The notes beneath the pieces are model-generated. The model did not search any database. It saw nothing but the letters and a program-made list of their open reading frames with translations, and was not told where the DNA came from. A stretch of DNA of 64,000 bases from assembly GCF_000516985.1 (NCBI RefSeq), contig NW_006917099.1, forward strand, positions 1,070,685 to 1,134,684, given 5' to 3'. The translations under genes and the position numbers were made by a program. How positions within the stretch are numbered: position 1 is the stretch's first letter; every line of letters starts with the position of its first letter. Shown here one piece after another: positions 1 to 53,756 of the stretch. Source of the DNA: Pestalotiopsis fici W106-1. Its lineage: Eukaryota; Ascomycota; Sordariomycetes; Amphisphaeriales; Sporocadaceae.

Positions 1-3000
1 GCCGTTGCGCTCAGCCAAGCAACCAAGGTGGTTGATTGAACTGATGAGGAGAATCGTTGTCATCCTTACGACCATTGACAACAATATGTGTATACTGAAT
101 TATACGTTTCCAGCACTCTGCCTCAATGTATACTTCAATAGTGCATGGTAGCAAGAAGTTTGTTCTTCGGTCGAGCAACGTCCGCACAGTTTAGGGAAAA
201 GTATGTGCTCAGCTTGCGATCAAAGAATCCAGGAACCACTAATGCATCCATCGCCTTTTGTTTTCATGTCGAGTTGGATCTCGTCGGTGCGAGTCGCAAA
301 GAGGTTGGTAAACTTGTTTGGAGCTATTTTGTTGCATCATTGACTGAATCATTCGGCCAGGGTAAAAATTGCCAAAGTTGGCAATGGCACGCCTAGGGCC
401 ATATAATACGTGGGTCAAGACTACACAAAAACTCGCAACGCGGATTTTCAGTGAGGGCATTTTAGGATCCATGAGCAATATTCCAGTCGCATGTTGATTT
501 GCATTTCTTCAGGAAAATAAAAAGTCTGAACACGGCGCTCCGAATCACGGTAGAGTTGATCACTATTGGTAAATCCCATCGGTCTGGGCTTTCAACGGCA
601 CCGGCCGCGCAATCCTGCAATAGCCCGAGAATTCATTCGCGGCTCTCATCAGCCATCCAACAGCCAATTCCTTATCGTAAAAGGCGATCTCCCGGCAAAT
701 GGTGCCAGACTCCATCTTCTTGCTCACGAAGAAACCCGAATTAGGCCTGATTCGGACGCTCCACAAAGTCCATCGGAATAAGGTACTGGGGTATAATATC
801 CATAACGTAGGTACGTAGTATTTGGGGTGGATTCCGTGCACAACAGATGGCCCCATTCGTGCGGGTGGGGGAACTACTTGGAAAAAAAAAAAGTGATCCA
901 TAGAATATTCTTCTTCATTTGTTGTTGACACAAAACCGTAGAAGCTCCACTGGCCTATACCCAGCCCACCGCGGAAACGCTTTTGGCTGGAATTCAATTG
1001 GGCTCCTCGTAAATACTATGACTGATCCGCAACCCCCTGTCAACTGCGAATTCGCAGCCGCTATTATGGTCGTTTAGTAACGATAAAAGCGAAGCCGTCG
1101 TCGCGGCTAGGGGGCGACACGACGATCCGCCCCATCTGAAAACCCTTTGCAAAAAAGAAAACTGAACAAAGGCCAGCCTGGCAAGGCCTGTCGTAGCCAG
1201 TAAATTTTTTTCTTTGATATTTTCATTACGGTTAGGGTTTGAGGACAGGACCCCTGATTCCCGCCCGCGGAAAGTTTGGGGGTCCAAAACACAAATGATG
1301 GCCAAGGCGGCATAAGCAAATAAGGATGAATGCAAATACAGGCCATGGATGAAAAGTCGCCCAACAAGCCGCGTCCAATAAAGAAATGTCGACGACGTGA
1401 TTTGCTGAGATACAGTGCACATCACATCCAATCCTTGACATTGCAGCAAGCAGACATGCTTGACAGGTATATTCATAGGTAGAGACCATGTTGAGGAAAA
1501 TCCGGATCAGCCGGTCATGAGCAATAGTAGTAATGACTTGTTTTGGCCGAGGCTATGTAATGCATCTGTTTCTGTTACCAGACAAGGCAGCGATGCAAGT
1601 TGTAGCATGTCTATTCGTCTAAAACAGGATTAACAAGGGTCCTTGTTGCGGGATGCATAGAAGCTACGGAATACTGTACATAGGTGCATAACCATGGCAG
1701 GTTGTGTTGCGGGATGATGGCAGTGTGTGTATGTATATTTATTTATTCCGTAGTAGCCCACGCGACGCCCAACTTTGCACTAAAATTAAAGCCGCATACA
1801 ATTACTTCCCTTCTGTCCGGCAAAAAGACCATTTTTGTCATTGTTCCATTGTGGAATACACAAAATATTGCTAGATAACTCATTTCGCCTATTCAAAGTA
1901 GGTACGGACGTTTACTCCGTAACTTGCAACTACTATTACTATGACAGTCGCTGTTGCCCCCGTAATATCAGAGCTCGTACCGCCGCCTGGCGAGCTGACC
2001 AAGAGCTAAACCCCAATGAGGCAGGACGGTCCTGCAAACATTAAAGAACCCTACCCAAGGTACCTGAGGCGAGGCGGCGCCCAGCACGGTTGCAACAAGT
2101 ACCTCCTCCTCAGGTGGGCAGGCAGCGAGGGACATCAGCGCGCAGAGCGCGGGTCTCCTCCCGCGGCGGGGCGCTAGTGATTATCAGGCCGGTACGTGTG
2201 CCCGACCATCAATCAGTTGTCGCATTTGCTTATCAGGCAGGCTTGTTAGGTCGGTTGGTCATGTAGTATGTACTAGGTAGTAGGCAGGCAGACCGGCAGA
2301 TCAGACAGGACAGGGCGGTTCAACCAGGAAATAGAGAACAAGTCGCCGTCTTGCCGTATCTATCCCATTTGCCCGTCTTATTGTCCAACTCTCCTTCTAA
2401 TCCTTCTCCTGCTTGTCAACAGAAAGAGTGATTCTTGGATATAGACTTTCGTTTGTGTGTGTTTCGCTTCTTGTCTCTGCTCTGATTTATCTGTGCTTCC
2501 CCATTTTCAGCCCGCTTCCACAAAGTCAAGGACCCTGAACCAAGGGTCCATTGTCAGAGGATCGATCGCGACCCCTTCAAGAGTTGAAAGGAACAAACCC
2601 TTCATCGTCAGTGGTTCCAGCCGAGGAGAACAGAAAAACTTATCCAAACAGCGGAGCCTTGCCTCACGAGTCATCTACGAATTACGACCTGCTTATTCGC
2701 CCTGATTCTACGCATCTTTGCAAGTACAGTTACAGCATCGCACTTCTTCATGCGAGCAGCGCCCACGTCACTGGAACCGCCCTGGCCGAGACCTGCTAGC
2801 CGGCACGATTTACGTAAAGAGCGGGCGCTCCTGATGCAAGGACACACGATCCCCCAGCGAGTCAAGCACGCGACCCGGTCCTAGTTGTGTACCTACATTA
2901 CATGCTACATCATTCTTATTATTAACAGCACTTGGCTTTTTGAGTTTGGTACGGCCGTCCGTCCGCCGCATTCCTTGCGCCAGCGGGCCAGAGAAGAAAC

Positions 3001-8125: not shown

Positions 8126-10885
8126 CTATATGAAAGAACTTGATGGCATCTTGTGGCCTTCACCAGAACGCCAATTGGCAAAAATCTCACCCCATGCCAC
8201 TATAGCCGCGCTCCGAACAGACTGGTCTTCATCCGACAAGCGCCGGGCAAGCGTCTCGATGATCACTTCGGGTAGCTCCAACGACGATAGATCAAGATCA
8301 CGAATCTGTATAACGTGAGCCAGACCAAAATATTGGTCTTGTCGTTGCCAGTTGAACATTCGGACGAAAGACTGAAAATACGTATCGGATTGGGAAGCAT
8401 GAATGGACACGGGATCGATTCCGAACAGCTTGTCTGTGACCATCCAGAACGACTCCCGGATCAGGGTACGAAGAAGTGTCTCGTCGGCTGGTGACGTGCC
8501 AAACAGGATAAATGGATTCTCGAGCGTGATGCAGATTTTGACCATCCAGAGCCAATCTCCAAAAAGAATCCAGACCAGCGCCACAAAGGCCGCAATGGGG
8601 AACTCGCGAAGCAGGATCAATGGGTTCCTCTTTCGAAAGCTGTCCCTGGCCGCCCAACCCAACCTCCAAGCAAGATCCAGAGAAGAGCCGTGAGTGCCTG
8701 CAAGGGGAAACCGCGAGATAAAATCATGGGATCAGAGTCAAAGATCCTATCCTCAAACATCCATGCCAACTCATGGGAAAACGTGCGAACAAGAGCCTCG
8801 AGCCTGGGGACAGTCCAAATGTCGGAAGCGCCCCGCGTGTAAATCTTGGTCATACCTCTAATGGTCGATTTTCGGAGCCACGGCCTTGGATCCTCTAGGT
8901 TTCTGACAAATTGACAAGTCACGTCCTCGGGCCACCATTTCTGTGCATTCGATTCTCGTTGCTCGTTGAAACTGTCGAGTCTTGCTTAGTCAAAGTTCAT
9001 ATCGACAGAGGCATTTCTAAACCCACTCGTAATATCATGACCCAACTCATAGGTCATATCTGAAGCCCTGCTGTCAAGATATCGATCCACAAAGTCACGT
9101 CTCTTCCGAGAAGCAATTTGAAGAGTGTAATCGGGGGTTTCGTTATCAGTTCCATGCTCAGAATCAGGCTCTGGGAGCGATTTCAGCGAGAATGAGTGAA
9201 TATGTTCAGCAATATGATTGAGCAGCTCCTCGGAATCAGGTGCCCCAGTGTGATCACACAATGGGCACTGGCTGATGCCGAATGGAACGTGATGCTGAGT
9301 TGCAAAGAATAGGATACTATCGCTATAAAGCATATCTTTTGGAATGGCTTTCGCGTGTTGACCTCTTGTATGCTGGATGAAGTCCTCGGTTGTGGGATAG
9401 AGGGTAGGCGTGATGCCCGGGGCGGAACAAAGTAGACATTGCCAACTATTTTGATGGTCTTGCATGATATGTTGCATCCAATCCGCGCGCCGCGTATACA
9501 GGACTTCGGGATGTGCACATGAATCGATGATACAAGTGTACGGTCTTATGTCATCGACAAGATGTTCCCTTGGCCACGAGAATGATTAGCGGCATACGGA
9601 ATCTGTTCGCAGTTAGGGTAGCTTACCTCCAGAGTGCTTCCTCTTGGTATGCCAATGGCAAAACTAGGTAACAGTACGGGCATTTGAAGTTATGAGCACC
9701 AGCCTGAACCGTTGGGGGTTGGGGATAAACACACTCCACTGTCGATCCCGTGATTTGATGTGATTTATCCCGGTAGCTGGACGTCTTGGTTTTCCCGGAC
9801 TGGACTGATTGACCAATATTGTCTTCACTTTCACTCTCAGACAGGACATATTCCCAGTCTTCAGTCTGTTCAAATTTCTCATAGTCGTCGACCGAGGCCT
9901 GAGTTATGTTTCTGGTGTATTTGTATTTAGGAACCGCTTCGGGAACTCGTGACCTCGCCATTCTGTGATGCGCCGAGGGAACTCTCCAATGATTTCGATA
10001 GTTCTTGGATCGGAAACGCCTTGATTTGGGTGGCATCCTGTTTAACTCGTCATGACTTTTCCAATCTTCCCCATGGTCGATCACAGCCCTAGTCTTGTTC
10101 TGGGAGTATTCAGACACTTCCATGCGGGCCATTCCAGACTCTGCTGTGAGTCCGGCATCGAAGCATGGCGGGTGTTTCCTAGAATACAAGAACCAATGTC
10201 TTCGCCTCATGTTTGATTCAACAAGTCTCTTCTGCAGAGGCGTCAAGTTGCTACTTGTGCTGTCAAGGTGCTGAGCCAGTATAAACCTCTCTGAAGACGT
10301 CTTGAGCTCAATGTGATCTGTCGCCTTGAAGTGCTTGTCCGCTTCCGAGCATCTCGTACTCAAATCGGTATCTCTGAGTGCCTCAGTTAGCCGAACGAGC
10401 TGTTTGATTGAGTGGCCAACATCTTCCTGGGCGCAAGCTAGGTCTTCAGAGTCTGACTGTTCTTGGTCCTGGGCAGGCAGAGGAAAGCGAGTAATAGCTG
10501 GTCGGGATTTCTTTTCATCTAGCAGGCGTAACAATCCTTTCGTAGTAAACTCAGGGCGCAACGTAGTTGAGACTTTCTTTGTTTCTTTCTTTTCCGGAGA
10601 GCATACCTCTAGGCAAATTTCGGTGCACTCTTGGATCAGAGCAAGGGCGTTCAATAAGATGTATACATTATCGCGTTCGCGAAGTACTCGATCAATCAGA
10701 GCAGCACGTCTGTTGGCAGATACACCAAAGTCCGCTGTCCAAAGGTTGAAATGTGCGAGCTGGGTTTCGGCCCACTCAGACTCCATCAACATGGGCTCTT
10801 TCACACATTGCTGAAGGGTATCCCGACACTTGGAGGCGGCCTGATAGATCGGGAGTGTGCCCATGTCATGTGTGCGGAGATCCAT
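8126..10885 (-). CDS. AcuF-type C2H2 zinc-finger protein with C-terminal HEAT-like repeats, apparently frameshifted
   Basis: Exon 1 (10885-9627) gives a ~420-residue N-terminal region. It opens with a helical segment containing the motif FNLWTADFGVSANRRAAL, common at the start of fungal zinc-finger and STAND-like proteins. A clean intron (9569-9626) joins FKCPYCYLVLP...EALWR to REHLVDDIRPYTC...CAHPEVLY...W..HIMQDH, which is the AcuF-like C2H2 signature; further Cys pairs (CLLC, CPLCDH) follow. Exon 2 meets a TAA at 8988-8986, but the same frame resumes as clear coding (NEQRESNAQKWWPEDV), so a 51-bp intron at about 9022-8972 is likely. The C-terminus holds HEAT-like repeats, including two or three related ~108-nt units. 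One unit is 107 nt, which throws the frame near 8630-8660 and leaves the last ~170 codons (to 8126) in another frame. That is either a real lesion or an assembly error. It is divergent from the protease gene downstream. Function unknown; nucleic-acid or protein binding inferred. Confidence 0.6.
8519..8733 (-). repeat. Tandem ~108-nt coding repeat (107 + 108 nt), partial third copy
   Basis: Read on the minus strand, 8733-8627 and 8626-8519 align without internal gaps over their first ~75 bases. They encode (D/N)PxIL...FP...AL(L/V)WIL(L/F)G(G/D)W. The first unit is 107 nt and the second 108 nt. A third, shorter match (NPFILF) starts at 8518. The missing base coincides with the frame switch in the host gene. 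Confidence 0.65.
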
Positions 10886-12050: not shown

Positions 12051-14820
12051 ATGGATTCTACAATCCAAGTCGCCCCAGATCTCAGCATGCCGACAGGACG
12101 ACAGCTGCTGAGACTTGCTCATGATGTGTTCGAACGCATCTGCCACATTGCTGTCGACCTTTGCAACACGATACCAGACACAGCCCAAAGGCGTAAGAGC
12201 AGAATCCGAAAGTTGGCCAATGAGCTTAGCATTGCCAGAAGAACAATTGCTCGTTTGAATACAAAATCAATTTCAATCGCGCATCACGACGAGCTGCAAA
12301 ATAAGCTCAGGGAGCTGGTCATTTACATGGAAATGCTATGCCGCGTATGTTGCCTGAGGTATGGAACATAACCAGTCGAACATTGATACTGATCGTAGTG
12401 CGACTGCTTGCAGGGGCCTGGTAGTCTACAGACCGGGCAATGTCCTATGCTTTATACACTGCTCAGTCTCACTACTACTCAACTCCCTGAGTTCGATCCG
12501 ATAACCGAGGGAATCGAGAACAAAGTTCGGCGGAATCTTCTTGTCTTTGCTGGCTGGTCGAGAGACCAGCGACAAATGTACCTGGAAAAGCTCGTGTGTT
12601 TCTCTGGACTTGCAAGGGGGGACACACTTCCGTACAAAGAGGGCTGGCCCCGCGAGCATGATCACACTTTGAGCGATCTTTCTCGAAGGAACAAATCAAT
12701 GCTTCATCGGGCCTTTCTCCGAAATTTAGATTGTGATTGTGATAAAAGCCACGAGGTGCGATTGAGCTTGAAGGGCTTTGTTAGCAGAGGCCGAAGCCAT
12801 CGAGCAGGTAACAATACATCCTTCAATGAAGATGTCTTGATGCGTTCCATGTCACCAGTCCCGAGTGTCTGGCGAGATATTCAGTTCCGTGTCACAATGT
12901 GAGTATTGCCCATGTCTCAAGGTACACGCAACTTACGGAAAAGCAGAGGCACTGGCAATGCAACACCGCTTGGTCAACAATCCATTCCGCTCAATGCTCG
13001 GACGTTTTGTGCTTTGGTCCGTTCTGGACATGAGCTCAATTCGAGGTTGCGCCTTGAAGTGAGAAATTCCCAGTTCCACCAGCTGCAGGGAGTTGATCCG
13101 CACATGCAAATGGACCTCTATCCCAGCCATTCTCTCCGTGATATCTTGCAGACTCATCGTCTATCTAACAAGGATAAGCTTGTTTTGTCCTACATTATCG
13201 CACGGTCCTTTTGGCAATACTATGATTCACAGTGGATGAACAGGAATTGGACAAGTGATTCTATTCACTTTTTCTTCAAGCCTCCACAAAATCTCGAAAG
13301 ATTTCCAGGCTCCATATACGCAAACGACCCATACCTTGCAGCTAGCTTTGAGGAGCCTCTTAAGACCTACGACGAATTCGCTGGATCAATTGATGTCGCT
13401 TACAAGTATCCCAGAGTCTTGGCGCTTTGTACCATTCTCCTAGAGATTGTTTGTGGCCCTCAGCTGGAGAGAAACTCACACGATACGATCGAGCAAAGGT
13501 TCAACGATCAATTTGCACAGGCCTTGAGATACGCTGGAGACAATAGCGTGTGGCACAGCTTTGAATACAAGGAGTTTCGGGAAGCTTTGCAGACTTGTCT
13601 TGTCAGCAAAACATTCGACCTTGCCACAACACGCCATGGTTCTGAGTGGGCTCATGACCTTGAGCATAGGCGAAAGATTTTACATGACAACTTGGTATAT
13701 CCACTCCATTCCTTGATTAGGGGTCTCCGGTTTGAGAGTGAGCTTATCCGAATCGAACCTCTGAGCTTGCGGGGTGCTGGCACAGAAAGAAGAGAGGCTT
13801 CAGCTTCCAGGGAATGGATGGAGGCAATATACGATGCCCATCTGAGGACCAAAGCGTTGCTTGACCCCTTGCCAACAGGTGAAACAAACACGCGATCCGT
13901 TCGAGTAGCAGTCTTAGATACCGGCTGTGATACATGTGCAGCATTCTTCCAACCATTTGAAAGCGCAAGGCAGATCGCAAAGTGGCGAGATTTTGCAGGA
14001 GAGAGTTCCGAACCAGTAGATGAGGAGGGCCACGGAACACACTGCACATCCTTGGTGATGAAGATGGCCCCCGAAGCAGAGATATACCTGGCGAGAATTG
14101 CAAAGCGCAGGGACGACATAGCCGACGCTGTAGAAGCGATATGCAATGTAAGTATGATTCGAGCCTTGTTCCCTGAACCCACTTGCACTAAAAGAATTAT
14201 AGGCAATCGCATGGGCTTCTAATGAATGGGATGTCGACATCATCACCATGTCGTTTGGTTTTAACGAACACGTAAGGGAAATCAGGACATCTCTGATAGC
14301 GGCCGAGAGGATGAAGAAGAATCAACTGTTACTTTTCGCCGCCGCCTCAAACTCGGGTGCCAACCTGCCCGAGATGTTTCCTGCGTGTTGCGATTCGGTT
14401 ATATCCATTCGCCAGACCGACAGGTATGGAGCATTCTCGGTGGAAAACCCCCCAATGAACTTGAGAGACGCATACGTGTATGGTACTTTGGGTCGGAGAG
14501 TTCCCTCATCCTGGAGCTTGCCAGAAACGGGCGAGGTCGCAAAGTCGGGGTGTTCAGTAGCCACGGCAATCGCCGCGGGCATTGCTACGATGATATTGAC
14601 ACATGCAACACTAGGCTTTCCATCAAATGACTATCCACCCCCGGAAGTGCATGGATTATGGACGCGGCCTGGAATGCTGGCCATGTTTGAGAGGTTATCT
14701 ATCGAGGTAGAGCCTCCGTCTCGCCAGAGGTTCTTGTCTCCTGCAGAATTCTATGCAAGAAACGGGAACACAGCAGAAGCAGTACGAGCCTTACTCGAGG
14801 AGGTATCCAATTCTTACTAG
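12051..14820 (+). CDS. Subtilisin-like serine protease with DUF7580-like N-terminal region (HET-Q2-type)
   Basis: Four exons: 12051-12344, 12414-12898, 12944-14147 and 14203-14820, giving about 866 residues. Introns are 69, 45 and 55 bp; using CAG at 12946 instead would make the second 48 bp. Residues 1-100 are helical and basic. About 105-430 resemble the fungal DUF7580 region, with the block LYPSHSLRDIL...RSFWQYYDSQWM near 320 and a later KYPRVLALCTILLEIVCG-type segment. The peptidase S8 domain occupies ~575-800 with all key residues: Asp585 (AVLDTGCD), His623 (GHGTHC), oxyanion Asn711 (AAASNSG) and Ser779 (SGCSVATAIAAG). The usual GTSxATP is GCSVATA here, but Ser is kept. There is no signal peptide, so it is probably cytosolic. 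It lies 412 bp upstream of a gasdermin-like gene on the same strand, the arrangement known for het-Q2/het-Q1, where the protease clips the pore-former. The substrate here is inferred. Confidence 0.85.
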
Positions 14821-15232
14821 ATAAATTGAGTTTCAAAGACGAGTTAGTGTACGCCGGCTCCGACTTACTCAGCCTCCACGTACAAAAAGCCTTCGCCATG
14901 TGAAGGATTGAATAATCGTAGTCAAATGCGCACTATATCAGGAAGAAAGTAAGATTGCCAGGCATTTCACAAGCCAGCAAGGTTTCCAAGATATCTTATT
15001 CGCGCACAGATTATGAACACAGGTATTAAGGTATTGAGTTGCAACCAAGGTGGGTGCGCATCAGAGCTGAAGGATGGTTGAAGTATCTCGCATATAGAGC
15101 ATATTCCAGCTGAGGTATATCATGGTTGACGATCTATAAAACCGGTATAATATACAAGAATTTCTTGATTTTGTGAGTTGACAATATGTCTCGAACCAAG
15201 TGACAGGGAAACCCCGACGCAACGAGATCAAC
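14821..15232 (+). promoter_or_regulatory. Spacer between protease and gasdermin-like gene
   Basis: 412 bp, AT-rich, with no frame of interest. It must hold the protease terminator and the promoter of the gasdermin-like gene if the two are transcribed separately. No specific site was identified. Confidence 0.4.
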
Positions 15233-16114
15233 ATGTCTCCCGAATGCACATACCTACTGGCTAGTGCGCCCTCAAACCTTACTTATACGCCGTCAGGGCC
15301 GATTCAACTTGGGAATATCATCGCCAATCCTCTGGAGCCAGCCAAGGTGCTTTCGTCGATCGACGACAAAGTCGGCCGCGCCTATAACAATAATTTAGAG
15401 AAGGATTTTCAGTTCTCGCAGGGTGGCGGATTGAAATTCCAGGGTGGCTTCTGGGCAAAAGTTCTCCAGGCATTCGGTCTTTCCTTCGACGCCATCAATG
15501 ACAAGCACGAAGCTGTCTCCTACTCTGTCAAGAAATTGGAAACCCGCACGCTGAAGAGTATACCCAGGGAGGAGGAGCTTCGAAAGCGATTCAGTGAGCT
15601 CGCTGTCCGCAGACATCTGAATTCTGGGCACAGAACTCCCAAGCTGTATCTGATCTGTGGGCTCAAGGTTGCATATGGTATGACAGTTTGCACGGACAGG
15701 GCTCACGACCGAGGCGGCGGTGTTCAAGCTGAGGTTCCGATCCCCGCAGATGGAATTGGTCTGGCGGCAAGTGTTGGAGCGGGTATTCAACTGAATCGAC
15801 AAAGGCAACGGGTTATGCGGTTCGAAGCCGAAGGGCCAGTAGTCCTGGCGTATGAGCTGCTTGTCATACGCGTCCGAAAGCGACGGGACCAAGGGATCGA
15901 CATTGATTCATATAAACCAAGAGGAGCATTTTTGCACGGCGACGACGACGACGGGAGCGAGGATGATGTATTGTCTGAACAGGATAGTGGATATTCTGGA
16001 GACGATACTGAGATCGAGACAAGTACAGTAGAAAGGGCGGATCTTGACAAATGGGCAAAAGGCTTCTGGATCACGAATGAAGACGGGCAGGAGACCATAG
16101 TCGACCGTACTTGA
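15233..16114 (+). CDS. Gasdermin-like protein (RCD-1 / HET-Q1 type candidate)
   Basis: Intronless, 293 residues from the ATG at 15233; the frame extends 33 bases upstream only through a GTG. The N-terminus carries the block YTPSGPIQLGNIIANPLEP that I associate with fungal gasdermin-like proteins. A PKLYLICGLKVAYGM strand block follows near residue 137, then Gly-rich strands (about 160-190) and a VVLAYELLVIRVRK segment near 205-218, which resembles the last strand of a gasdermin N-domain. Residues ~235-265 are strongly acidic (DDDDGSEDD...SGDDTEIE), ahead of a short hydrophobic/aromatic end. In known fungal gasdermins, proteolysis removes a small C-terminal segment; the protein then binds membrane lipids and makes pores that kill the cell. 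The adjacent same-strand subtilase fits as its activator. Identification rests on recalled motifs and gene order, not on an alignment. It could instead belong to a sister family of unknown fold. Confidence 0.68.
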   Translation: MSPECTYLLASAPSNLTYTPSGPIQLGNIIANPLEPAKVLSSIDDKVGRAYNNNLEKDFQFSQGGGLKFQGGFWAKVLQAFGLSFDAINDKHEAVSYSVKKLETRTLKSIPREEELRKRFSELAVRRHLNSGHRTPKLYLICGLKVAYGMTVCTDRAHDRGGGVQAEVPIPADGIGLAASVGAGIQLNRQRQRVMRFEAEGPVVLAYELLVIRVRKRRDQGIDIDSYKPRGAFLHGDDDDGSEDDVLSEQDSGYSGDDTEIETSTVERADLDKWAKGFWITNEDGQETIVDRT

Positions 16115-17249
16115 TCACAAATCTTTTTTATCAAATTGAATAACTTGAGTTTTCGGAAATTGAATAGTTCAACACTAAAGAAACCGTAACACTGGAGAAA
16201 GCATCTTGAATCAAATGCCATACACCATTTACTCCGGCATCGCGAATATGTGGTTCTTTTCAAAGTTTGATGATCCAATCGCTGACTATCGCCTAGAACA
16301 AGTTACTTCCCTAGTCAAATAATTACCAAGCAGATCTCGGGACATTTCAAACAAGAAAAAGATGTTGCGTGCTTCGACACTATTTGTACAGTCCTCAATT
16401 CGTTCGATTCAACACGTTTCTAAATCTTTGTCTGATCAGTCCCATGCTGATGTCTATGCCGGATGATCTTTGCATGTGCATGTCAAGAATTATTTCAAAG
16501 TCGCGACCCGATATTCTTGGCACTTCTCCGCACTTTTTCGTACATCAAAGTGTAGAACCCGGAGAGTGGAGAAGCAGCGACACGCCCACGGAGAGAAAAT
16601 GAAGACGCTATAAGATTCGAACTTGGCGACACGAAAAAGAACAAGAGTTTCTAAAAGCATTGGCAACTAGGCAGTGTTTCTTGGGACTTTATTTCATCGT
16701 GTTCAATTGTGGAGTGTTCATAGACAGGCGTGAAACTATTCCACTAATGAGCTACAAGACATTCTATCCCTAACACAACTTGGCCGTGGACGTATCCGTC
16801 TCCAAAAAAAGACCGAGACAATGACCAGTAGACATTCATAGCCATCAAGGCTGTCGGGATGACAAGATGGTGGGATTTTCCGAGAGCTCCGGGAACCCTG
16901 GGACAATGATCTTCTCTCCCATCCTTGTCGCTCCAATAGCTAGGGACTGCCAAGTACGCACCTGGGCTCCATGCCACCTAATTTCCCTCCAATTGAATAG
17001 ACGAATCGTCCACGTTATCCATTTTTACAATATGCATGTTAGTTCTTGGGTCGCTATGAAGGACTATATTCAATATTGGACTCATAAGCCGCAGCCTTGG
17101 CGATAAGGGGCAACATGCGATCGTAGGAAAACATAAAAGAGAGAGTGTGTGCTCTCCACGACGATGGATGAGAGCGACCCGGTGGGCAGATTTAGAATAT
17201 CCAATTCAACTATTTACCCAATCACCAAGTCCGCGGTGAATTACTCAAG
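16115..17249. other. Intergenic region before the GH105 gene
   Basis: 1.1 kb with no supported gene. It separates the immunity-like island from the secreted-enzyme genes and should include the GH105 promoter. Short frames at 16369-16602 and 16744-16977 show no domains. Confidence 0.45.
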
Positions 17250-18606
17250 ATGAAGACCTCTATTCTGAGTCTCCTGTCTGTTGGCGCCGCCTCGGCTGCG
17301 GCGCAGACTTCGTTGCTCGCACGGTTTGCCGACTCCTTCATCAGAAGAGGCGTCGAGTACGACTTTGGCTACACGGCAGCAACCTTGTACCTAGGGTATG
17401 AGGCTGCGTATGACCTGACCAAAAACGAGACTCTCTACGACTGGTACCACGACCAGATTGACGGCGTTGTGGCCGACGATGGAACCATTGTAGACTGGAA
17501 TTATACTTTTTACAGTCTCGACGAATACGTAAGTACTTTGACTCTTGCCCAAATCCTGGCACCAAAAGAACCAATTCATCATGAAAGAATCACTGCTAAT
17601 TACACGAAGCGCATGGGTAACAATTACCTTTACTGGTACAATGAGACTGGCGAGGAAAAGTACAAGTCTGCCGCTGCAATTGTCCGAAGCCAGCTCAATA
17701 GGCATCCTCGTACACCCACCGGAGGCTTCTGGCACCGCCAGCCCACCTACCCCAACCAAATGTGGCTCGATGGCATCTTCATGGCAGACAGCTTCTACGC
17801 CAAGTGGACAAGCTGGTTTGACGCCGACAACGTAAGTGGCCAAGCGAACTCTGACTTGGAGTCATCAAATGAACAACTTGTTGATCTGTTAACTAGACCA
17901 CTGCCTGGGACGACATTTTGTCGCAATACGAGCACATTGAGGCACACACGCGCAACACGACCAGCGGTCTCTTGGTCCACGGCTACGACGAGAGCTTCAA
18001 GGCAGTCTGGGCGGACCCAGTGACGGGCGCCGCACCGCTCGTCTGGGACCGCGCCGTCGGTTGGTACTTTCTCTCTCTGTGGGAGACGCTGCAGGTGTTT
18101 CCCCAGTCGCACGAGGGCTACGCCCAGCTGCTGGGCTACTTTACCACCTTGGCAGATGCGCTCAAGACGACCCAGGACGAGTCTGGCGGCTGGTGGCTCA
18201 TCATGAGCGAGCAGTACGTCGGGGCCGAGGGCAACTACATTGAGAGCAGCGCGTCGGCCATGTTTGTGCTCGGCATGTTCCGCGGTATTCGCTCCGGGTA
18301 CATTGAGAGCGCCGACTTTCTTGCCACGGCACAAAAGGGGTACAATCTCCTGGTGGACAGGTTCGTCGTGGAGAATGGCGACGGCACTTTGAACTGGGAG
18401 GGTACCGTCCAGGTTGGCTCGCTTGGTAGCAACGGAACATACGAGGTGAGCTTGCCTGATGCATCAGCAATACTTTGTTTTTCCGCACCTGCTGACAATG
18501 ATTACAGTACTATATCGGTGTCCCTCTTGCTTCCAACGACTACAAGGGAGCCGGCCCATTCATGCTGGCCTCTTACGAATGGGAGACCTGGGCCTCGAGC
18601 GCTTGA
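17250..18606 (+). CDS. Secreted glycoside hydrolase family 105 (unsaturated rhamnogalacturonyl hydrolase-like)
   Basis: Four exons: 17250-17528, 17610-17831, 17897-18445 and 18508-18606, giving 382 residues, the usual GH105 length. A signal peptide (MKTSILSLLSVGAASAAAQ) precedes the (alpha/alpha)6-barrel domain. Family blocks include GFWHRQPTYPNQMWLDGIFMA near residue 150, with the conserved Asp of the catalytic region, then HGYDES, WDRAVGWY, and GNYIESSASAMFVLGMFRG near 310. The protein ends in MLASYEWETW. GH105 enzymes remove the unsaturated galacturonyl residue left by pectate or rhamnogalacturonan lyases, by hydration of the double bond. Several NxT/S sequons fit a secreted glycoprotein. 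No other pectinase gene is nearby, so it seems to act with enzymes encoded elsewhere. The exact unsaturated substrate cannot be told from sequence. Confidence 0.9.
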
Positions 18607-19762
18607 TCGTGTAAAGAACTGGTCAGATGCTACAGTGTCGCGGTACATAAATGAAAGTATATACTAGAGCGCGTCGCATGGTATTCAACAATCAGTCATA
18701 TTCCCTAGACACAAGCAATAGATTGGATGTGTGCAAGTGCTCCGTATGTGTTACATTATAGCCCAAATGCGTCATCTGGCTCCGGCAAAATTGGTTTCTC
18801 CAATTCTTTCGTAGTGGCCTCGAGACCTATGAGATAGAACTGGGGCTGCCATGTGGACAGTAAGCACGTAATCAGATGGATGCATTGCCATTGTGAGAGC
18901 ACCATTTATTGAAAGCTACCGCGCCCTGCAGCCGGGGTAGCATCAACGCACACCCAAAGCTTCTGTTCTTGTTCTGTCGCTCCTATCTCCGAGAACTAGA
19001 ACAGGAGATGCCCATTAATGATTTGTGTGTAGGTTTATTTTTGCCTGCGCGCCCATTCGCTGTAGCTGTACTTGCAGTACGTGTTTCGGACACATGGAAA
19101 GAATCTTGCCGCTCGTATGCCCCCTCCCGCCGTCAATACCTTTGATGATTTTCTTTGCGACTTATGTGCCGTTGCTTATTCCCGGTGTCGCGTCTTTGCT
19201 GTATTGTGTAAGCGCTGACCTGGAGCGAGTCAGAGGGTCTTTAGACTATACGTAGTACTATCAGCTGTATAGCGTCTGTCCACCAAAAGCCCCAGAGATT
19301 CATCCAACAAATTATCACGACTATTTCTTTAACCATTGATTAATCATGCCACAAAATCCCCACTTCTCTGGATGTTTATCTTCTTTGGCGACTCTTTGTC
19401 CAAAAATTTGGATTTTCTATCCAGCAAAAGTTACCATTGAGGAAAACGCCTGGGAAGGACAAAGGTGCCGGGACATTGCTCGTGTTTCATCAACCAAACC
19501 CCTGCTCCTTGGCTCAAGATAGTGTGAAACCCATGTCTGTCTGATCCTAGACTGGGGCAAGCCGCGCGTTGTTGCGCTACTGTGTATTGCCCGAGTTTCG
19601 ACAAGGCACCATCATCTTTCGATATCGCTGTCGCTATCGCTGTCGACAGCTATCTAAAGAGATAAAAACTACTTCAACATCATTTCCCGTGTGTTTTCAC
19701 AAGCAGCAGCAGCATCAATACGAATAGTTCACACCGGTACAGTCCGAAAAAGACGCTAAAAC
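18607..19762. other. Intergenic region upstream of the UstYa-like gene
   Basis: 1.15 kb without a supported gene. A short direct repeat of TCGCTGTCGCTATCGCTGTCG type sits at about 19625-19648, ~120 bp before the next start codon, and may belong to its promoter or leader. Confidence 0.45.
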
Positions 19763-21501: not shown

Positions 21502-22824
21502 ATGCCTACAGAATTTATCAGGTACGAACTCCTTGAAATGAGTATAAACTACAACCACTAACACGGATATATATAGCCTAACATTCAACAACTCGGCGAC
21601 TGAGATCGCCACGGGTCCCAACCCGACCGGTATTGACCCCCAGTACCTGGTCAGATATGCCAGGACACTGGACGAGTATGGTTTCAACTATACACTGGTG
21701 CCGTACGGCTCGGGGTCCTATGATCCCTTTACCATTGGCGCCACCATTGCCGCCGTGACCAAGAACATTAGCGTCATCATTGCCCTGCGGCCCAACACCA
21801 TGTATCCAACCGTGGCCGCCAAGGCCCTGGCCACACTGGACCAGCTGAGCTCTGGCCGCGTCGTCGTGCACTTTATCGCCGGCGGCAGCGATGCCGAGCA
21901 GGCCAAGGAGGGCGATTTCCTCAGCAAGGACGAGCGCTACGGCCGCCTCGAGGACTACATCAAGATCCTCCGCCGCGCCTGGCAGTCGGCCGAGCCCTTT
22001 GACTGGGAGAGCAAGTACTACACCTTCAAGGGCTTCAGCAACCAGGTGCGGCCCACCAAGGGCACGATCCCCGTGTCCGTGGGCGGCTCCTCGCCCGAGG
22101 CCTACCGCGTCGGCGGCTCGCTGGCCGACATCTTTGGCCTCTGGGGCGAGCCGCTCAAGGAGACCAAGGAGCAGATTGACCGCATCTACGCCGAGGCCGA
22201 AAAGGCCGGCCGCACCGATCGCCCCCGCATCTGGGTCACCTTTCGCCCCATCCTCGCCGAGACGGACGACCTCGCCTGGCAAAAGGCCTACCGCTATCTC
22301 GACCTCCTCAAGGGCAACCAGGGCAAGGCTGGTCCCAACTTGGCGCCTCAGACCAACTCAGGTCCCCAGAATGTCGGATCGCAGCGGCTGTTGGATATCG
22401 CCTCTCGAGGAGAGGTGCAAGACCGCGCCCTTTGGTATCCTACTGTAAGTATCTATCTGGTTTATGCTCTTGTCGAGACTCGACACTCCACTATATGCAA
22501 GGGAGTGTACGAATCATCCACATCAGACGCAATATTGCTAACACTTTTTCATAGGTGACGGCCACGGGTGCCCGCGGCGCTTCTACGGCATTGGTCGGAT
22601 CGCCACAGACTCTGTCCGACTCGATCCTCGACTACGTAGATCTCGGCTGCGAGCTCATTTCCATTCGCGGCTACGACAACTACAATGACGCCGTCGACTA
22701 TGGCCGCTACATCCTGCCAAAGGTGCGCGCCGAGCTGGACAAGCGGGAAAAGGGCGAGACTTCTGCTGCCCCGGAGCCGTCGGCCAAGGAATCCAATGTG
22801 GTGGTCCCGGCTGAGAGCGGATGA
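21502..22824 (+). CDS. Luciferase-family (LLM) FMN-dependent monooxygenase, SsuD-like
   Basis: Three exons: 21502-21521 (only 20 nt), 21577-22444 and 22555-22824, giving 385 residues. The mini first exon reads MPTEFIS and restores a normal N-terminus before FNNSATEIATGPNPTGID. The TIM-barrel luciferase-like domain shows ALRPNTMYPTVAAKALATLDQLSSGR, VHFIAGG and GGSSPEAYRVGGSLADIFGLWGEP, typical of alkanesulfonate/FMNH2-dependent monooxygenases. The C-terminus has GSPQTLSDSILDYVDLGCELISIRGYDNYND and then a short low-complexity tail. Such enzymes use reduced flavin and O2, supplied by a separate reductase, to cleave sulfonates or oxidise small organics. No reductase gene is adjacent. It could serve sulfur scavenging or, beside UstYa and an MFS pump, a secondary pathway. 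Substrate is open. The long minus-strand frame across it is GC-driven shadow. Confidence 0.9.
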
Positions 22825-23261
22825 GGCTGTTGGATGAGTTTATGATTTTACGAGTAGCGCTTGCAGATTGAATTTTTTATGACAGCAAATATAGAAACAA
22901 TGTAAGTTATGCTGAGGGTCAATGCCGGAATCAGACCGACCGGTCTAACCAATACAGTTTTCATTATAATGTAATGAATGATTCGAAAGGATAGTGATGT
23001 ATGCCATGTCTGACGAGTTTCACGCACTGAAGTAGTATGGGCTCAGGACGACATTTGTTGCCTCTTAAATTTGATTGAACAGAAATGACACGCTCAATGA
23101 CTCATCCATCACTCGAAAAGACACGCCATCCACGAGAAAAATGAGCAGTGACTCCATTATGGGCCTTGAATGTAGTATCACTAAGTTTGCATGTTTCCTT
23201 GTGTTTCAGAGATCAGTATCATTCGAACAGAACATTATACCCAGTACAAAATGGAGACCGC
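22825..23261. other. Convergent intergenic region
   Basis: 437 bp between the 3' ends of the flavin monooxygenase and the MFS transporter. No gene or clear hairpin terminator is seen; it probably holds both polyadenylation regions. Confidence 0.4.
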
Positions 23262-25200
23262 TCAGCTCGTGGTCTTTCGTAATCCCTTGCCACTGATGAA
23301 AATCGATGTGATGACAGCTATGGCTGCGATACCAGTCGACGCCGCGAAAGAGTACTGCAGTCCTTGATAGTACACCAACCGCGCCTTGAGCTGAACATCA
23401 GGAGGCAGCTGTCTGAGGGCGTCGACGGAATGCCGGATGTCGTCAATGATCTGCATGGGTGCAGGAAGTAAGCAATGTGCACGAAGTGTGAGAGAAGAGA
23501 AATTGAGACTGTTATTGAATTGGGCCATAGGGAAAAGATCACATACCTCCCACTTGTTTGGAACGTCATTCAGGGCTTCTGGCAACTTGACGCTCAGTGT
23601 TGTCTGCAAGATGGCAGAAGTGATTGAGACGCCCCAGACGGTGCCGAGCGACCTAATGAGGTAAACTGTCGATGCACATACCGCGTGATCTACATAGGTA
23701 TTTGGGGTTAGTCATATGATGTTGATTATCCAGAGAGCCATTTCCCACTGACCTGCATGCTCAAACGTTGCCAGAGATGTAAACAGAATGCCCGGGTACA
23801 CGATACCCTGACCGAGGTTGGCCGGGAAAATGTAGACATAATACTTCCAGAGCGAATCCTCAAACTGGATAGAGGTGACCAAAGCATTGCCTACAGCCAT
23901 GAGGACCGCGCCCGTTCTCACGAGCGCCGTCAGCTTGCCCCAGCGCGACATGACGACACCAGCAATGACGCCGCCGATCGGCGTGGCCAGCGAGGGGATC
24001 GCGAGACGGGCACCGGCCGTGGTTGCCGAGTCCAAGAGAACAACCTGAAAGAACAAGGGCAGCATAAACAGGTAAGCGTACGCACTCAGCCCGACGCAGA
24101 CATTGGTAGCCTGCGTCAAACCGGGAAGCCATCCGTGCAGCATGCGCAAGGGAATCACGGGGATGGCTTTGGTCCTGGCCTCGACCACCAAGAAGAGGCC
24201 TAGCAACACGACGCTGCCGACAAGAGACGAAATCACCCAGGGACTGCTCCACGGCAGCTCGTTGCCCCCCAGACTGAGCCCGATGAGCTGCACCGAAATG
24301 GCAGTGACAAGGAGCAGGGCCCCCGAGATGTCCACGGCACGCCACGTATCGGCGAGGCTGGATCCGCGCAGGGCATTGTGCGGGTTGCGGATCACCAAGT
24401 AGCCCAGCACCAGGGCCACGGCAGACACTGGCACCTGCAGCAGGAAACACCAGCGCCAGCCGATGGAGTCGGCAATGGAGCCGCCGAATGACGCCCCGGC
24501 AATGGCGCCGAATCCAAACGAGGCGTTTTGCAGGGCTTGGTACATGCCTCGCTTACGAAAGGGAATCATGTCCGAGTTGACAATAGTTGCTAATATCAAT
24601 CATCAATTTTAGCAATCTCCCTTTCTTCCTTGAATGTATAACAAAACTCCACTCACCCATGGTCATTAGACCACCGCCTCCAAATCCAGTGAGAGCCCTC
24701 ATGAGATTTAGCAGTATAAAGTCCTGCGCGACACCACAGCCCAGACAGCCCAAGGCAAAGGTGACGGTGGAAATAAAAAAGCAAACACGGCGCCCAAAGA
24801 TATCCGAGATGCGCCCGTACAGGGGCTGAAACGCCGTGCTGGTGACCAGGTAACTCGTCGTGAGCCACGAGGCCGTATTGACGGCGTCAAACTCCGAGGC
24901 AATGACGGCGTACGTGGCCGCCGTAATGGTGCTGTCAAAGCCGTACAGAAAGACGTTGGAGAAAATGGCCAGCTCAATGAGCATAAAGTGCCGGGGCGCC
25001 TTCCACTCGCCATTTTCGTCTTCGCCCGGCGCCGCTGTTTGGCTCAGTAGAGGCTGCCGCTCGCCCGCAGACTCGGGCAAGCCTCTGCCTCGCTCCACCG
25101 AGTTGTCGTCGTCGTCGTTCCCGGCGGTGGCTGCGGCTCCGTCCCGAGTAGCTGCGGCCGCAACGTCAGTCGGGGGCGGAAAGTGTTCTATTGATGGCAT
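23262..25200 (-). CDS. MFS transporter of the DHA2 / vacuolar basic amino acid (Vba/Fnx)-like group
   Basis: Four exons: 25200-24657, 24589-23753, 23689-23547 and 23450-23262, giving 570 residues. A long acidic, low-complexity N-terminus (1-~75) precedes about 14 hydrophobic segments. MFS signatures are visible: the loop 2-3 motif GRISDIFGRR near 135, motif C-like GFGAIAGASFGGSIAD near 205, and RALTGFGGGGLMTM. The pattern of an ATIVNSD(M/L)IP stretch after the fourth span and a late VYLIRSLGTVWGVSITSAILQ segment matches fungal Vba/Fnx transporters, which move basic amino acids into the vacuole. Its neighbour is LYS2, so lysine or another basic amino acid is an attractive substrate. An efflux role with the UstYa/monooxygenase pair is the alternative. 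Intron positions keep frame throughout. Confidence 0.85.
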
Positions 25201-25739
25201 CTTGGGTGGTTGCAGAACTTCAATCTCATGTCACGATGGAATCTACAATAAAACCAGCCCGTCTCTGGCAATGAGTACGTTTATAACCAAAGCAGTCGGC
25301 CAGTACGCCGATTCTCTTTTTGCTTACGGGCAGATATTTCGCTTGGTCTTAATTGCGTGATCAGTGGTGGAGATATAACGACTATTGCATGCCGCTAGTG
25401 CAAGAATGAGACTGCCCACATCCCAGAAGGGCGTGTGATTGTCAATAAGAATGCTTCCATATCATTGGTTTATACTATCTCATTGGGTCGGGGCTAATTG
25501 GAAACGCATAAGACCTACTCTGTCGGCATGACTCAGACCTAGTGGTTGGAAGAGTGGACTATATGATCACCGACTTCATCCCAGGTTGACCAGGATGCAA
25601 ACTTGACAAACTTCATTTTATTTACACGTCTCAAGGCTCTCCCAAATCTATATGTAGACCCTGTAGATTCTTATCTAGTCAAAACACAAATCGCTTTTCA
25701 ATTCTGACCCTCGAAACTACAAAATACACAATATCAGCT
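25201..25739. other. Intergenic region, LYS2 terminator and MFS promoter
   Basis: 539 bp between two minus-strand genes. It should contain the 3' end signals of the aminoadipate reductase gene and the MFS promoter. No specific element was recognised. Confidence 0.4.
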
Positions 25740-28700
25740 CTAAGCCGCACCACCACGTCCACCAATGGCTTGAGCCTCTGTCGTGATCTCGGGCAAAGGC
25801 CTTCCCTTCTCCGTTGGCTCGCTAATGAACTTGATCTTGGCCAGGTACCCCAAGTACTTGCCAATCTCTTCTCTGCCAATGCCGTAGCCAAAACTCTCAT
25901 CAACGCCTGTCCACCTCTCCGCATCTGCCTTGAGCACTGCAGCCGTGTTTCTATCGTCTAGCTCAGGAGCACGGGTGTTTGCAGGGAGGTCGTTCATACA
26001 AAAGTGGAACAGGGGCATGAGAGCATGCTGCTCTTGATCCTTCTCAAGGGCACCAGCAGACACGAACTTTTCCAGCTCAGACTTCCAGGCGTCGTAGCTG
26101 ACTTCGGGGGTCTTGTAGCCATAGTACTCCAGCAGGGACAGGTACTCATTCATGCGAAGGCGGGGGTGGGCCGTGACGTGCAGGACGTGAGCACCGTCCG
26201 GAATAGGGTTCAGGGCGGCAGCGACAACGATGCGAGAGACGTGGTTAACCGGGACAGCATTGACAGTGTTGACAATGCGCGGGCGCGATGAAAGTTGCAC
26301 GCAACCCTTGAGAATTCGAATCAGGAAGTCATCAGTGTTGCAAACACCAGTAATCATGTCACCAAGAATGTAGCCGGCCCGAATGACGGAGCCCGACAGT
26401 CCACGCTTGCCTGCCTCTCGGACAAGTTGCTCGGAAACCCACTTGGTCTGGCCGTAGCCTGTGCCAAGACCTCTGCGGCTGCCTTCCATGTCATCGGTCT
26501 CGTAGACAGCTCCCTGGCCAGTGCTGGTTTGCTGCTCGGAAAGCTGGATGTAGTGATCAGTGTCCAGCACACTGGTCGAGCTGACAAATGTGAATGTCTT
26601 GGGCTTTCCTTCGTTGCAGAGCGTCAATGCGTCGAGAGTAGACAAGACATTGGCAGTCATCATATCTTGGTATCTCTTGACCCAGTGGACAGTTGCACCG
26701 TTGTGGATAATGACATCTGCCTCATTGGCAACCTTTTTCCAGCTGGCCTCGTCGAGTCCAAGGTTTGGCAGAGCCAGATCACCAATAACACAGCTTACTC
26801 TTGAAGCCCATTCCTCCTTCCAAAGACCGTAGGCGCTGATGGAGCGCTTGAGGCGATCCAGAGCCGCCGCCGAGTCCTTGACACCTCGGACATGAGCAAT
26901 CAGGTTGACCTGGCGGCTTGTGCGATCCATAATGTCCTTGACCAAGTAGGCACCCAGGAAACCTGTGGCTCCCGTGAGGAAGACTGTAAGAGGCTCGGAA
27001 CCACCAATTGCGTCCAAGTTGGCTGTCTGGTACTTGGGTGCCAGACGGCCCATGAGCTCGTCCAGAGACTTGGCATACGCGGGATCGCCCTCTTCAGCAC
27101 CCTCGGCAGCAGCACCGCTGGCCTTGTTGAGCAGGTTGTCGATGGCTGCACTGAACCCAGCCAGACTTGGGAACTCGTACAGTGTGTTGATGGAGACGTT
27201 TGCGCCAATGTTCTGTCTAATGTTGAGGAGCAGCTGTTGAGCCAAGAGACTGTGGCCGCCAAGGTCAAAGAAGTTGTGCTCTGGTCGGATAGTCTTGGGG
27301 TTCAAGCCACGGACGACGTCGGCCCACTGCTGGGCAACATTCTTTGCAGTCTCCGAAAGAGACTCCCAGCTCTTCAAGTCCTCCTCAGAGGCATCCTCCA
27401 CACGCTCCGCAACATCAGGGAAGGGCAGGTTTGGCTTGTCCACCTTGCCGTTGGGGTTGAGGGGAAGCCTGTTGAGGACAATGTAGATTGTCGGGACTGC
27501 ATACACCGGCAGACGGGTCTTCAAGTGGTCTCTGACCTCGGTCTGGAGAACTCGGTACTTTTTCAAGTAGACCTTGACGGAGCCCATTTCCAGACCTTCA
27601 TCCTCGACATCTTCAATCTCGCGCGCGGCGACAAAGCGTTGCCACTCGGCCGTTTCGGGCACAATATAGCTCACCAACGTCTGTTCTTCGTTACGATCTC
27701 TTCGCACGAGGGTCTTGCAGTCCCGAATTAGAGGGCTCTGGCTCAGATTGCTATCAATCTCGTTGAGCTCGATTCTGAAGCCACGGATCTTGACTTGGTC
27801 ATCAGCGCGACCAGTACACTCCACATCGCCCGACTCAAGGTACTTGCCGAGATCACCAGTTCGGTACATTCGGTCTCGGGGGCCTTGGAAGTACTTTCTC
27901 CAGGGCTCATTCTTGTTGAGCTGCTGATCAAGCTCGGCCCACTTCTTCTCGTCAACAAACCAGTTGTTGACAAATTTCTCCTGGTTCTTCTGAGGATCAC
28001 CTAGGTATCCCTCTGCCAAACCAGCAGCTCTAACGTAGATCTCTCCCGTCTCACCTACTCCACACAGCTTGGTGCGGTCTTGACGGTCGACAATCAACAG
28101 CTGTACACCCTCCATACCAGTTCCAGCTGGGACGGTGTCCTTCAGCTTGTCCATGAAATCGGCATCTCTAGCTCTGCTGGGGACCTCGAAATAGCTGACA
28201 GCTCTTTGCGTCTCGGTCGAACCAAACATATTTTGAATGTTGGCATTGACGGCGAGTTTTCTAAGAGTGCGGCAATCTCTAGTGGTGAGAACATCACCAA
28301 CAAAAAAGACCTGCTGCAGGCTGGGGAACTCTGCAGTGGCACCTCCGACGAGAATCTGACCCATAGCCGGTGTCAAGTGACTGACGGTAGGCTTGTGGTC
28401 ACGGAACCACTCGGCCAGCTTTTCGTGTTGGATGTCCTCCTTGGCGGGCACCAGCAACTGAGCGCCCAAGAAGAGGGGCGTGAAAATGTCTCGCTGGATG
28501 GGGTCGTGGGCGATACCAGAAAGCATGGTAAATCTGCTTTCCGAGGTCAAGTTGAAGCGCTTGGACATCCAAGGAAAGTATCTCGCCAAACTGTCGTGGC
28601 GACCCAGGACGCCCTTGGGGCGGCCTTCACTTCCCGACGTAAATGAGAGAGTCGGGTTGGAGTCGGGACCAACGATGACGGGCGGGGGCGGCCCCGAACC

Positions 28701-52931: not shown

Positions 52932-53756
52932 TGTCAATGATGCAGCATTGATCCGCAAGCGACAGGCTGGGAGAGTACAACAACAAGACCAGACGAGCTG
53001 GTTGTGTGTTGTAATGGGTCTTGTCCGTGTTTTGTTTCCTAAGCTCCCAGCTGCCTGCCTATCGCATCTACCTAGTGCAGCTCCGAAAGTTGCAGGGCGG
53101 GCTAATGATTTTTTTGGGCGAGACCTAAGGCAGAGAGAGACAGTCAGTGCTGCGGGATGATCTGTGGCGTAAAGAGATTAGGCGCGTCGACAGCTTTTAG
53201 ACACCTAGTACTATGTTCGGCAGCAGCCTTTGATTAGTTCGTCATGCTGACCCATGTCGCGTGCGGGCGAGCCTTTGGCGCGTTCCAATGTTATTTTCGG
53301 GGATAAAACAGCTTCCTGGGTCTTGACTCTGGACTTTTACAGGGGATGCTGACCCCGGACCGAGCACTACTGGCAGGCCGCCATCATCGCACTTGCCCAC
53401 ATTCAGCTAAGCGGTGAGTAACAGCAGAATCAAGTCGATCCATTGAGCTTCAATGCTTCCAAGGTTCCGCGGTGCCATTGGATTGAACCAGAGAGCTTAC
53501 ATAGTACTTCGCGCGCAGCTGATCTGCTCAAAACATTTCTGGATAAAGGCGCTGTCGCAAAGCCACAAACTTGCAACGACTGGCCTTTTTTTTCTTTATT
53601 CGTCAACTGCATCATCACTGCATGTTCTGCCTCTAGGTTCTAGCATGACCCAACATTCTCTACACTCTTTCCACGGTTGGTGATCTGTTACGACACCCAG
53701 GCCTGCCTATTACCCGTCCTGCCCTTGCGCCCAGTTACCCAGAACCTCGACGCACA
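52932..53756. promoter_or_regulatory. Shared divergent promoter of the Aquarius and THO1 genes
   Basis: 825 bp between the start codons of two divergently transcribed mRNA-processing genes. No other gene is supported. The stretch is moderately GC-rich without an obvious TATA box, as is common for fungal housekeeping promoters. Co-regulation of the two genes is inferred from geometry only. Confidence 0.5.

What the first reader, a model, noticed from the sequence alone, without database searches (positions are those of the whole stretch)
12051..16114. Two-gene protease / gasdermin-like cell-death module
A subtilisin-like protease with all catalytic residues lies 412 bp upstream of, and on the same strand as, a gene whose motifs and length resemble fungal gasdermins. 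In Podospora, het-Q2 (subtilase) cleaves HET-Q1 (gasdermin-like), and Neurospora rcd-1 alleles encode related killers. The pair is therefore a probable regulated cell-death or allorecognition system. The immediate arrangement has precedent; this locus and its protease architecture may be undescribed.
Basis: partly seen in the sequence, partly recalled or inferred. Interest (0 to 1): 0.9.

Follow-up and report, generated by a model that had tools for sequence, protein, structure and literature searches.

The report
Three-gene fungal gasdermin cell-death cluster
In a fungus, a pore-forming cell-death protein of the gasdermin family sits beside the protein-cutting enzyme likely to switch it on, and a zinc-finger gene next to them recurs at most of the fungus's other gasdermin clusters, pointing to a possible third part of the switch.

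Summary
The window is from Pestalotiopsis fici W106-1. The protease gene (12051-14820, four exons) encodes DUF7580 plus a subtilisin domain with D, H, N, S intact. After 412 bp, same strand, comes a 293-aa gasdermin: profile and fold matches are led by Neurospora RCD-1 (HET-Q1 matches weakly, by profile only). The pairing is more than chance: 7 of 7 gasdermins found in the genome have an S8 protease within 3.9 kb, and protease and gasdermin distances co-vary (r=0.77, highest of 5040 relabellings). New here: a C2H2-finger gene (10885-8986, minus) of a family with 14 places found, all 0.6-4.5 kb from a DUF7580 match; 6 of 7 gasdermin clusters carry it, in shuffled order. At one non-gasdermin locus DUF7580 is fused to a HET domain instead. 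Best reading: the C2H2 and DUF7580 proteins form a sensing unit with exchangeable outputs; here the output is gasdermin cleavage near the 'GAFL' boundary (about residue 233), freeing an acidic tail of about 6.6 kDa. Cleavage, death and the C2H2 role are inferred.

The parts
12051..14820 (+). DUF7580-subtilase gene (PFICI_11750), exons 12051-12344, 12399/12414-12898, 12947-14147, 14203-14820; putative sensor-protease
12681..13712 (+). DUF7580 domain (residues 193-520 of P0007, spans intron 2)
   Evidence: PF24476 E 1.3e-30; coordinates converted by hand from residues; no significant PDB relative by profile
13896..14601 (+). Peptidase_S8 domain (residues 582-798, spans intron 3), catalytic codons 13917 (D589), 14031 (H627), 14350 (N715), 14554 (S783)
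   Evidence: PF00082; alignment A5; residues printed
15233..16114 (+). Gasdermin gene, 293 aa, single exon
   Evidence: Profile hits; fold
15233..15934 (+). Predicted pore-forming core, residues 1-234; net charge about +8.8; ends in conserved G231-A232-F233-L/M234
   Evidence: Charge and column counts (F233 in 85 of 92 sequences); VIA-align model range 2..229 for the best row
15935..16111 (+). Predicted inhibitory tail, residues 235-293: acidic low-confidence linker, then two short strands (277-281, 287-292); charge about -16, 6.57 kDa
   Evidence: Model (pLDDT below 50 at 232-277); inhibitory role inferred from HET-Q1
8986..10885 (-). Divergent C2H2-finger gene, proposed third component: exons 10885-9627 and 9568-8986 (AAG acceptor placed by eye; the script found no standard intron); may continue to about 8126
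   Evidence: HEAT match E 0.0031, below its cut-off, in 8126-8731
10631..10867 (-). Shared N-terminal domain of the C2H2 partner family (14 places found in the genome)

Best explanation
This is a fungal pyroptosis-like cell-death cluster. The gasdermin is made with its basic pore-forming core held in check by a short acidic C-terminal tail. The DUF7580-subtilase is an intracellular sensor-protease; on a trigger, which probably involves the C2H2 partner, it cuts the gasdermin at or near the conserved GAFL boundary (about residue 233). The freed core binds the plasma membrane, oligomerises and kills the cell or compartment. Shown here: family of both proteins, intact catalytic residues, recurrent linkage within this genome, correlated divergence, linkage of the C2H2 gene. 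Inferred: cleavage, its site, pore formation, cell death, the sensing role of DUF7580 and of the C2H2 protein, and any role in allorecognition or defence.
For: Gasdermin membership by profile and predicted fold. Subtilisin fold and intact residues. All 7 gasdermins found are beside an S8 match, 6 of 7 beside DUF7580 followed by S8. Gasdermin and S8 distance matrices correlate, r=0.77, p=0.0002, that is, the highest of all 5040 relabellings. Proteins with DUF7580 plus S8 occur in Apiospora, Trichoderma, Colletotrichum, Fusarium and Nemania (16 of 16 listed hits carry both labels). C2H2 family at 6 of 7 gasdermin loci, and 14 of 14 family places within 4.6 kb of a DUF7580 match; its distances correlate with the gasdermin's (r=0.68, p=0.0028, 6 loci). 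HET-Q1 is cut likely at F238 by HET-Q2, losing about 5 kDa (passages of PMC12881547).
Against: No functional data. The gasdermin model is only moderately confident (pLDDT 64, pTM 0.62), Foldseek TM-scores are at most 0.40 of the query with rmsd of 7.5 or more, and HET-Q1 itself is not among the fold matches shown. DUF7580 distances do not correlate significantly with gasdermin distances (r=0.19, p=0.21). The C3 gasdermin has an S8 protease without a DUF7580 match, and no place of the C2H2 family was found on contig C3, so DUF7580 and C2H2 are not needed in every cluster. Some S8 genes have no gasdermin match nearby (C6:901, C7:1527, C12:1035). The cleavage site is placed by analogy. The C2H2 gene is head-to-head with the DUF7580 gene at 9 of 14 places, which also fits a shared promoter or a regulator.
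Confidence: 0.75

Rival explanations
1. The gasdermin works like RCD-1, without cleavage: two divergent alleles meet after cell fusion and assemble a mixed pore; the protease serves something else.
For: The nearest solved relatives by sequence and fold are RCD-1-1 and RCD-1-2, reported not to be controlled by cleavage (PMC12881547 passages).
Against: A strongly acidic tail of about 60 residues follows the conserved core, and every gasdermin found in the genome has an S8 neighbour, with correlated divergence.
Confidence: 0.1
2. The C2H2 gene is a linked transcription factor that controls expression of the DUF7580 gene, not part of a sensor.
For: C2H2-like fingers at 12 of 14 family places; head-to-head with the DUF7580 gene at 9 of 14 places, the window included.
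Against: At 5 of 14 places it is tandem (4) or convergent (1) with the DUF7580 match, among them three of the six gasdermin loci that have it (C8:518, C8:2012, C6:1317). Some partners run on into ankyrin or kinase stretches on the same strand, unusual for a simple regulator; that these are one gene is inferred except at C1:1834451, where finger motif and ankyrin repeats share one frame.
Confidence: 0.3
3. The linkage reflects a shared genomic neighbourhood of self-recognition genes (a defence-island effect), without a functional unit of three.
For: HET-like ORFs lie near some of these loci (seen by eye in L012, L019 and L028). PMC10197012 raises fungal defence islands as a hypothesis.
Against: 14 of 14 places within 4.6 kb of one gene family looks tighter than an island effect, and gene order is reshuffled while linkage is kept; this judgement is mine, not a test.
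Confidence: 0.2
4. The cluster is a decayed, inactive copy.
For: The window's gasdermin and protease differ strongly from those of other species (best gasdermin relative 41%; best protease relative 39%).
Against: Frames open, splice sites usable, catalytic residues and GAFL boundary intact.
Confidence: 0.05

Closest known systems
HET-Q1 / HET-Q2 of Podospora anserina (fungal gasdermin plus subtilisin-like protease)
   Same: Adjacent gasdermin and S8 protease genes; short C-terminal tail after the core; intact subtilisin residues
   Different: Here the protease carries DUF7580 and a C2H2 gene is linked; the profile match to HET-Q1 (9uv9) is weak (6e-4 with 92 sequences; 0.063 with six)
RCD-1-1 / RCD-1-2 of Neurospora crassa
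   Same: Closest solved relatives by profile and fold
   Different: RCD-1 is reported to act without cleavage and is 244-257 aa (passages); this one is 293 aa with an acidic tail
Bacterial gasdermin-protease pairs (bGSDM)
   Same: Gasdermin fold, short tail, neighbouring protease (the last two from the reviews)
   Different: Other kingdom; profile match only 0.02 to 7e-5
Q2L proteases: S8 or CHAT proteases beside fungal gasdermins, 18 architectures (PMC10197012)
   Same: This protease is a Q2L protein by position
   Different: The passages I read name ANK, TPR and WD40 repeats, NLRs and 'predicted kinase-like domains'; none names DUF7580 or a C2H2 partner. The primary paper (Clave 2022) was not held
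Fungal NLR effector domains (S8, HET/TIR and others)
   Same: Two of the same outputs (S8, HET) are attached to DUF7580 in this genome
   Different: No NB-ARC or NACHT family was matched in the window's protease

Membership tests
Gasdermin family (fungal, fGSDM) | Sequence profile match to solved gasdermins | tested here: met
   6 window-family sequences: 7 of 7 hits at E<=1 are gasdermins, best 6.4e-5; 92 sequences: RCD-1-2 1e-16; 7 of 9 hits at E<=1 are gasdermins, the other two SprA at E 0.6. The single sequence alone finds none
Gasdermin family (fungal, fGSDM) | Gasdermin pore-forming fold | tested here: met
Gasdermin family (fungal, fGSDM) | Short auto-inhibitory C-terminal tail | tested here: inconclusive
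   A 59-residue acidic tail exists after the core; inhibition not testable here
Gasdermin family (fungal, fGSDM) | Membrane pore formation and cell death | not testable with these tools
   Needs expression
HET-Q2-like (Q2L) protease | S8 domain with intact D, H, N, S | tested here: met
HET-Q2-like (Q2L) protease | Gene next to a gasdermin gene | tested here: met
   412 bp; an S8 match lies within 3.9 kb of 7 of 7 gasdermins found in the genome
HET-Q2-like (Q2L) protease | Cleaves its neighbouring gasdermin | not testable with these tools
   Needs co-expression
Heterokaryon-incompatibility (het) system | Polymorphic alleles that kill when combined by fusion | not testable with these tools
   One strain only
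Protein kinase-like fold (for DUF7580) | Significant sequence or fold match to kinases | tested here: inconclusive
   PDB profile search at E<=10: 23 of 26 hits are IRAK4 sequences but at E 0.77-0.93; hhalign to one kinase frame of this genome 0.2%; the structural lists shown were filled by subtilisins

The most novel reading that the evidence does not exclude
The C2H2-finger protein and the DUF7580 protein are a paired, non-NLR sensing platform of filamentous fungi with exchangeable death outputs: subtilase-gasdermin at six loci of this genome (perhaps seven, with the doubtful C2 locus), a HET domain fused to DUF7580 at another. The window's cluster is then one plug-in of an unnamed fungal immune receptor system.
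Probability: 0.35. Interest if true: 0.85.

Novelty: new variant of a known kind. Interest (0 to 1): 0.58.

Why it matters
What stimuli set off the sensors upstream of fungal gasdermins is called a major open question in PMC12881547 (passages). A third gene that stays linked to DUF7580-protease-gasdermin clusters through rearrangement, and to other DUF7580 genes too, is a concrete candidate for the missing upstream part and makes the question testable by gene deletion and reconstitution. If the C2H2-DUF7580 pair is a receptor platform with exchangeable outputs, it would be a parallel to NLRs that searches for NB-ARC or NACHT genes would miss.

Tried and rejected
Considered and set aside. (1) That the 293-aa protein is not a gasdermin: single-sequence Pfam and PDB searches were empty or chance, but profiles and fold settle it. 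HET-Q1 (9uv9) does not appear in the fold lists shown, only in the profile lists. (2) That DUF7580 is a degenerate kinase: only sub-threshold IRAK4 hits and nothing against one local kinase frame; left open. (3) An eighth gasdermin at C2:1028923-1029762: profile E 0.83, no hit at E<=0.05 with the larger profile, hhalign probability 73, E 3e-5 over 85 columns; its relative at C5:48533-49226 has no DUF7580 or S8 match within the 10 kb fetched; not counted. (4) Synteny in other fungi: not possible with the tools (G000 has no relatives here); replaced by the within-genome test. (5) Comparing contig lengths between gasdermin hits (120 of 298 listed) and protease hits gave, by eye, one match outside this genome (A. 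arundinis). (6) One script for the C2H2 gene's introns found none; its model was placed by eye and its 3' end is unsure.

Rows dropped or merged before counts. A fourth C2H2 query gave 8 places: 7 are among the 14; the eighth (C1:4495467) matched the query only outside the shared domain (residues 30-161) and is not counted; no DUF7580 match lies in the 10 kb around it. Weak hits (E up to 0.2) are included in the 14. The queries came from DUF7580 loci, so the family may have members elsewhere that they cannot reach; without the three query loci it is 11 of 11. One of the 29 DUF7580 matches, the neighbour of one of the 14 (C1:194926), is below the family's cut-off. In one search I merged the exon matches into 24 S8 places by hand and added C6:1318; most S8 places away from DUF7580 were not fetched. 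The gasdermins of C8 were first seen by looking inside DUF7580-S8 loci and were then also found by genome-wide searches with other gasdermins. The random-placement figures treat loci as independent, which related loci are not.

Literature: 'DUF7580' is in 0 held papers; among the 10 listed of 92 papers none on fungi holds both gasdermin and C2H2; 'Pestalotiopsis fici' plus 'gasdermin' 0; the listings (10 of 7,367; 15 of 538; 4 of 4) show no title or abstract start on a C2H2 partner. Clave 2022 is not held. Seen: section 15 of PMC10197012 and found passages of it, found passages of PMC12881547, PMC11138114 and PMC11760362; the rest as listings only.
Full report
Origin. The window is C9:1070685-1134684 of a 51.7 Mb assembly in 20 contigs. 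Its protease is 99% identical over 100% to PFICI_11750 of Pestalotiopsis fici W106-1 on a contig of 2,598,408 bases, the length of C9. The C8:520921 gasdermin is identical over 275 of 275 residues to PFICI_10859 of the same strain. P. fici is a sordariomycete of the family Sporocadaceae; that it is a plant endophyte is recalled.

Anatomy of activation. Conserved columns run to G231-A232-F233-L/M234 (F233 in 85 of 92 sequences, A232 in 90 of 92). Beyond lies a tail of 59 residues, 6.57 kDa, charge about -16, against a core of about +8.8. The tail is mostly low-confidence, ending in two short strands. HET-Q1 loses about 5 kDa, cut likely at F238 (passages of PMC12881547). I infer a cut near F233/L234; this is a prediction.

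Is the pairing real? Genome-wide protein searches with four gasdermins found seven gasdermins: C9 (window), C12:1016323, C1:3405427, C8:520921, C8:2014987, C6:1322979 and C3:4208567. All seven have an S8 match within 3.9 kb, six of them within 0.9 kb. At six of the seven, DUF7580 stands just before S8 on the same strand: in one frame in C9 and C12, in adjoining frames (presumably exons) elsewhere. The protease is upstream on the same strand in C9 and C12 and convergent in C1, C8a, C8b and C3; in C6 it lies 3.8 kb upstream on the same strand with the C2H2 gene between. Distances between the seven gasdermins and between their seven S8 domains correlate (r=0.77, p=0.0002, the highest of all 5040 relabellings). 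The reverse does not hold: the S8 loci C6:901, C7:1527 and C12:1035, fetched whole, have no gasdermin match.

The third gene. In the first three loci a divergent gene with C2H2-like fingers was visible upstream of the protease. Its N-terminal domain was searched genome-wide with three queries: 14 places in all, every one 648-4506 bp from a DUF7580 match, out of 29 DUF7580 matches in the genome. A fourth query added none that shares the domain. The chance of one random place lying within 6 kb of a DUF7580 match is about 0.7%. A finger motif lies downstream on the same strand at 12 of 14; in the loci of orfs2 13 ORFs of 100 aa or more hold it, 12 of them at these places. Six of seven gasdermin loci have the family, in different order and strand, so linkage has survived rearrangement. 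It is head-to-head with DUF7580 at 9 of 14 places, tandem at 4 and convergent at 1. Its distances correlate with those of the gasdermin (r=0.68, p=0.0028, 6 loci) and of S8 (r=0.54, p=0.035), less clearly with DUF7580 (r=0.48, p=0.068); DUF7580 against S8 gives r=0.40, p=0.054, and against gasdermin r=0.19, p=0.21.

Other outputs. At C1:1837597-1840272 one open frame holds a HET domain (3.2e-12) and DUF7580 (1.7e-34), beside a C2H2 partner whose frame also holds ankyrin repeats. At C12, C10 and C5 a kinase-like frame follows the finger frame on the same strand (2.6e-9, 3.6e-18, and 2.4e-7 just under the cut-off); whether it is the same gene is inferred. In the frames scanned at four further partner loci (C6:1048, C6:2710, C6:2010, C1:194) only DUF7580 was matched. 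Of the 14 places, seven have an S8 match within 3.6 kb: the six gasdermin loci and C2.

Reading. The two-gene part belongs to a known plan: about 80% of fungal gasdermins are clustered with protease genes, about 63% with S8 proteases, with 18 described architectures (PMC10197012 section 15). What I could not find described is the C2H2 partner and its tie to DUF7580 (listings seen in part; the primary paper is not held). The boldest reading that stands is a two-protein sensing platform with exchangeable outputs; the cautious one is a linked regulator, which the 9 head-to-head pairs also fit. Both are testable by deletion and binding.

Noticed in passing
L016 (C6:901109-905880) and L018 (C7:1523640-1528396), outside the window: Two loci with ankyrin and S8 frames each sit beside a member of one family of about 300 aa with no Pfam or PDB match (33% identity, E 3e-39). 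A third member at C14:493195 lies about 3 kb from an S8 match; two further matches (C2:3394355, and a weak one at C3:4512998) are not near one. It may be a second protease-switched effector family.
   Followed up: partly
C2:1028923-1029762 (L014:5924-6763): An ORF convergent with a DUF7580-S8 locus, with a C2H2 partner on the far side; marginal gasdermin match (hhalign probability 73). Possible very divergent gasdermin.
   Followed up: partly
C1:4495467-4495856 and C8:2016171-2017064: The C2H2 partner ORF of the C8b gasdermin locus shares an 82% identical stretch (query residues 30-161) with another locus that also has finger-like frames downstream (by eye) and no DUF7580 match nearby, suggesting a recently copied 5' end.
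   Followed up: partly
window 53649-56396: A THOC1-like frame is interrupted by one stop at 55023-55025 and reads on in the same frame through the THOC1 end into a guanylate kinase domain: either an intron and two neighbours or a fusion.
   Followed up: no
window 21548-28967: Luciferase-like monooxygenase, MFS transporter and an AMP-binding/PP-binding/NAD_binding_4 enzyme lie together; may be a small metabolite cluster.
   Followed up: no
window 17244-18664: A glycosyl hydrolase 88 gene split over two frames follows the gasdermin.
   Followed up: no
proteins: 13 of the 120 listed gasdermin relatives (298 found) carry the label PF26164, which is not in the library held; its name is unknown to me.
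   Followed up: no
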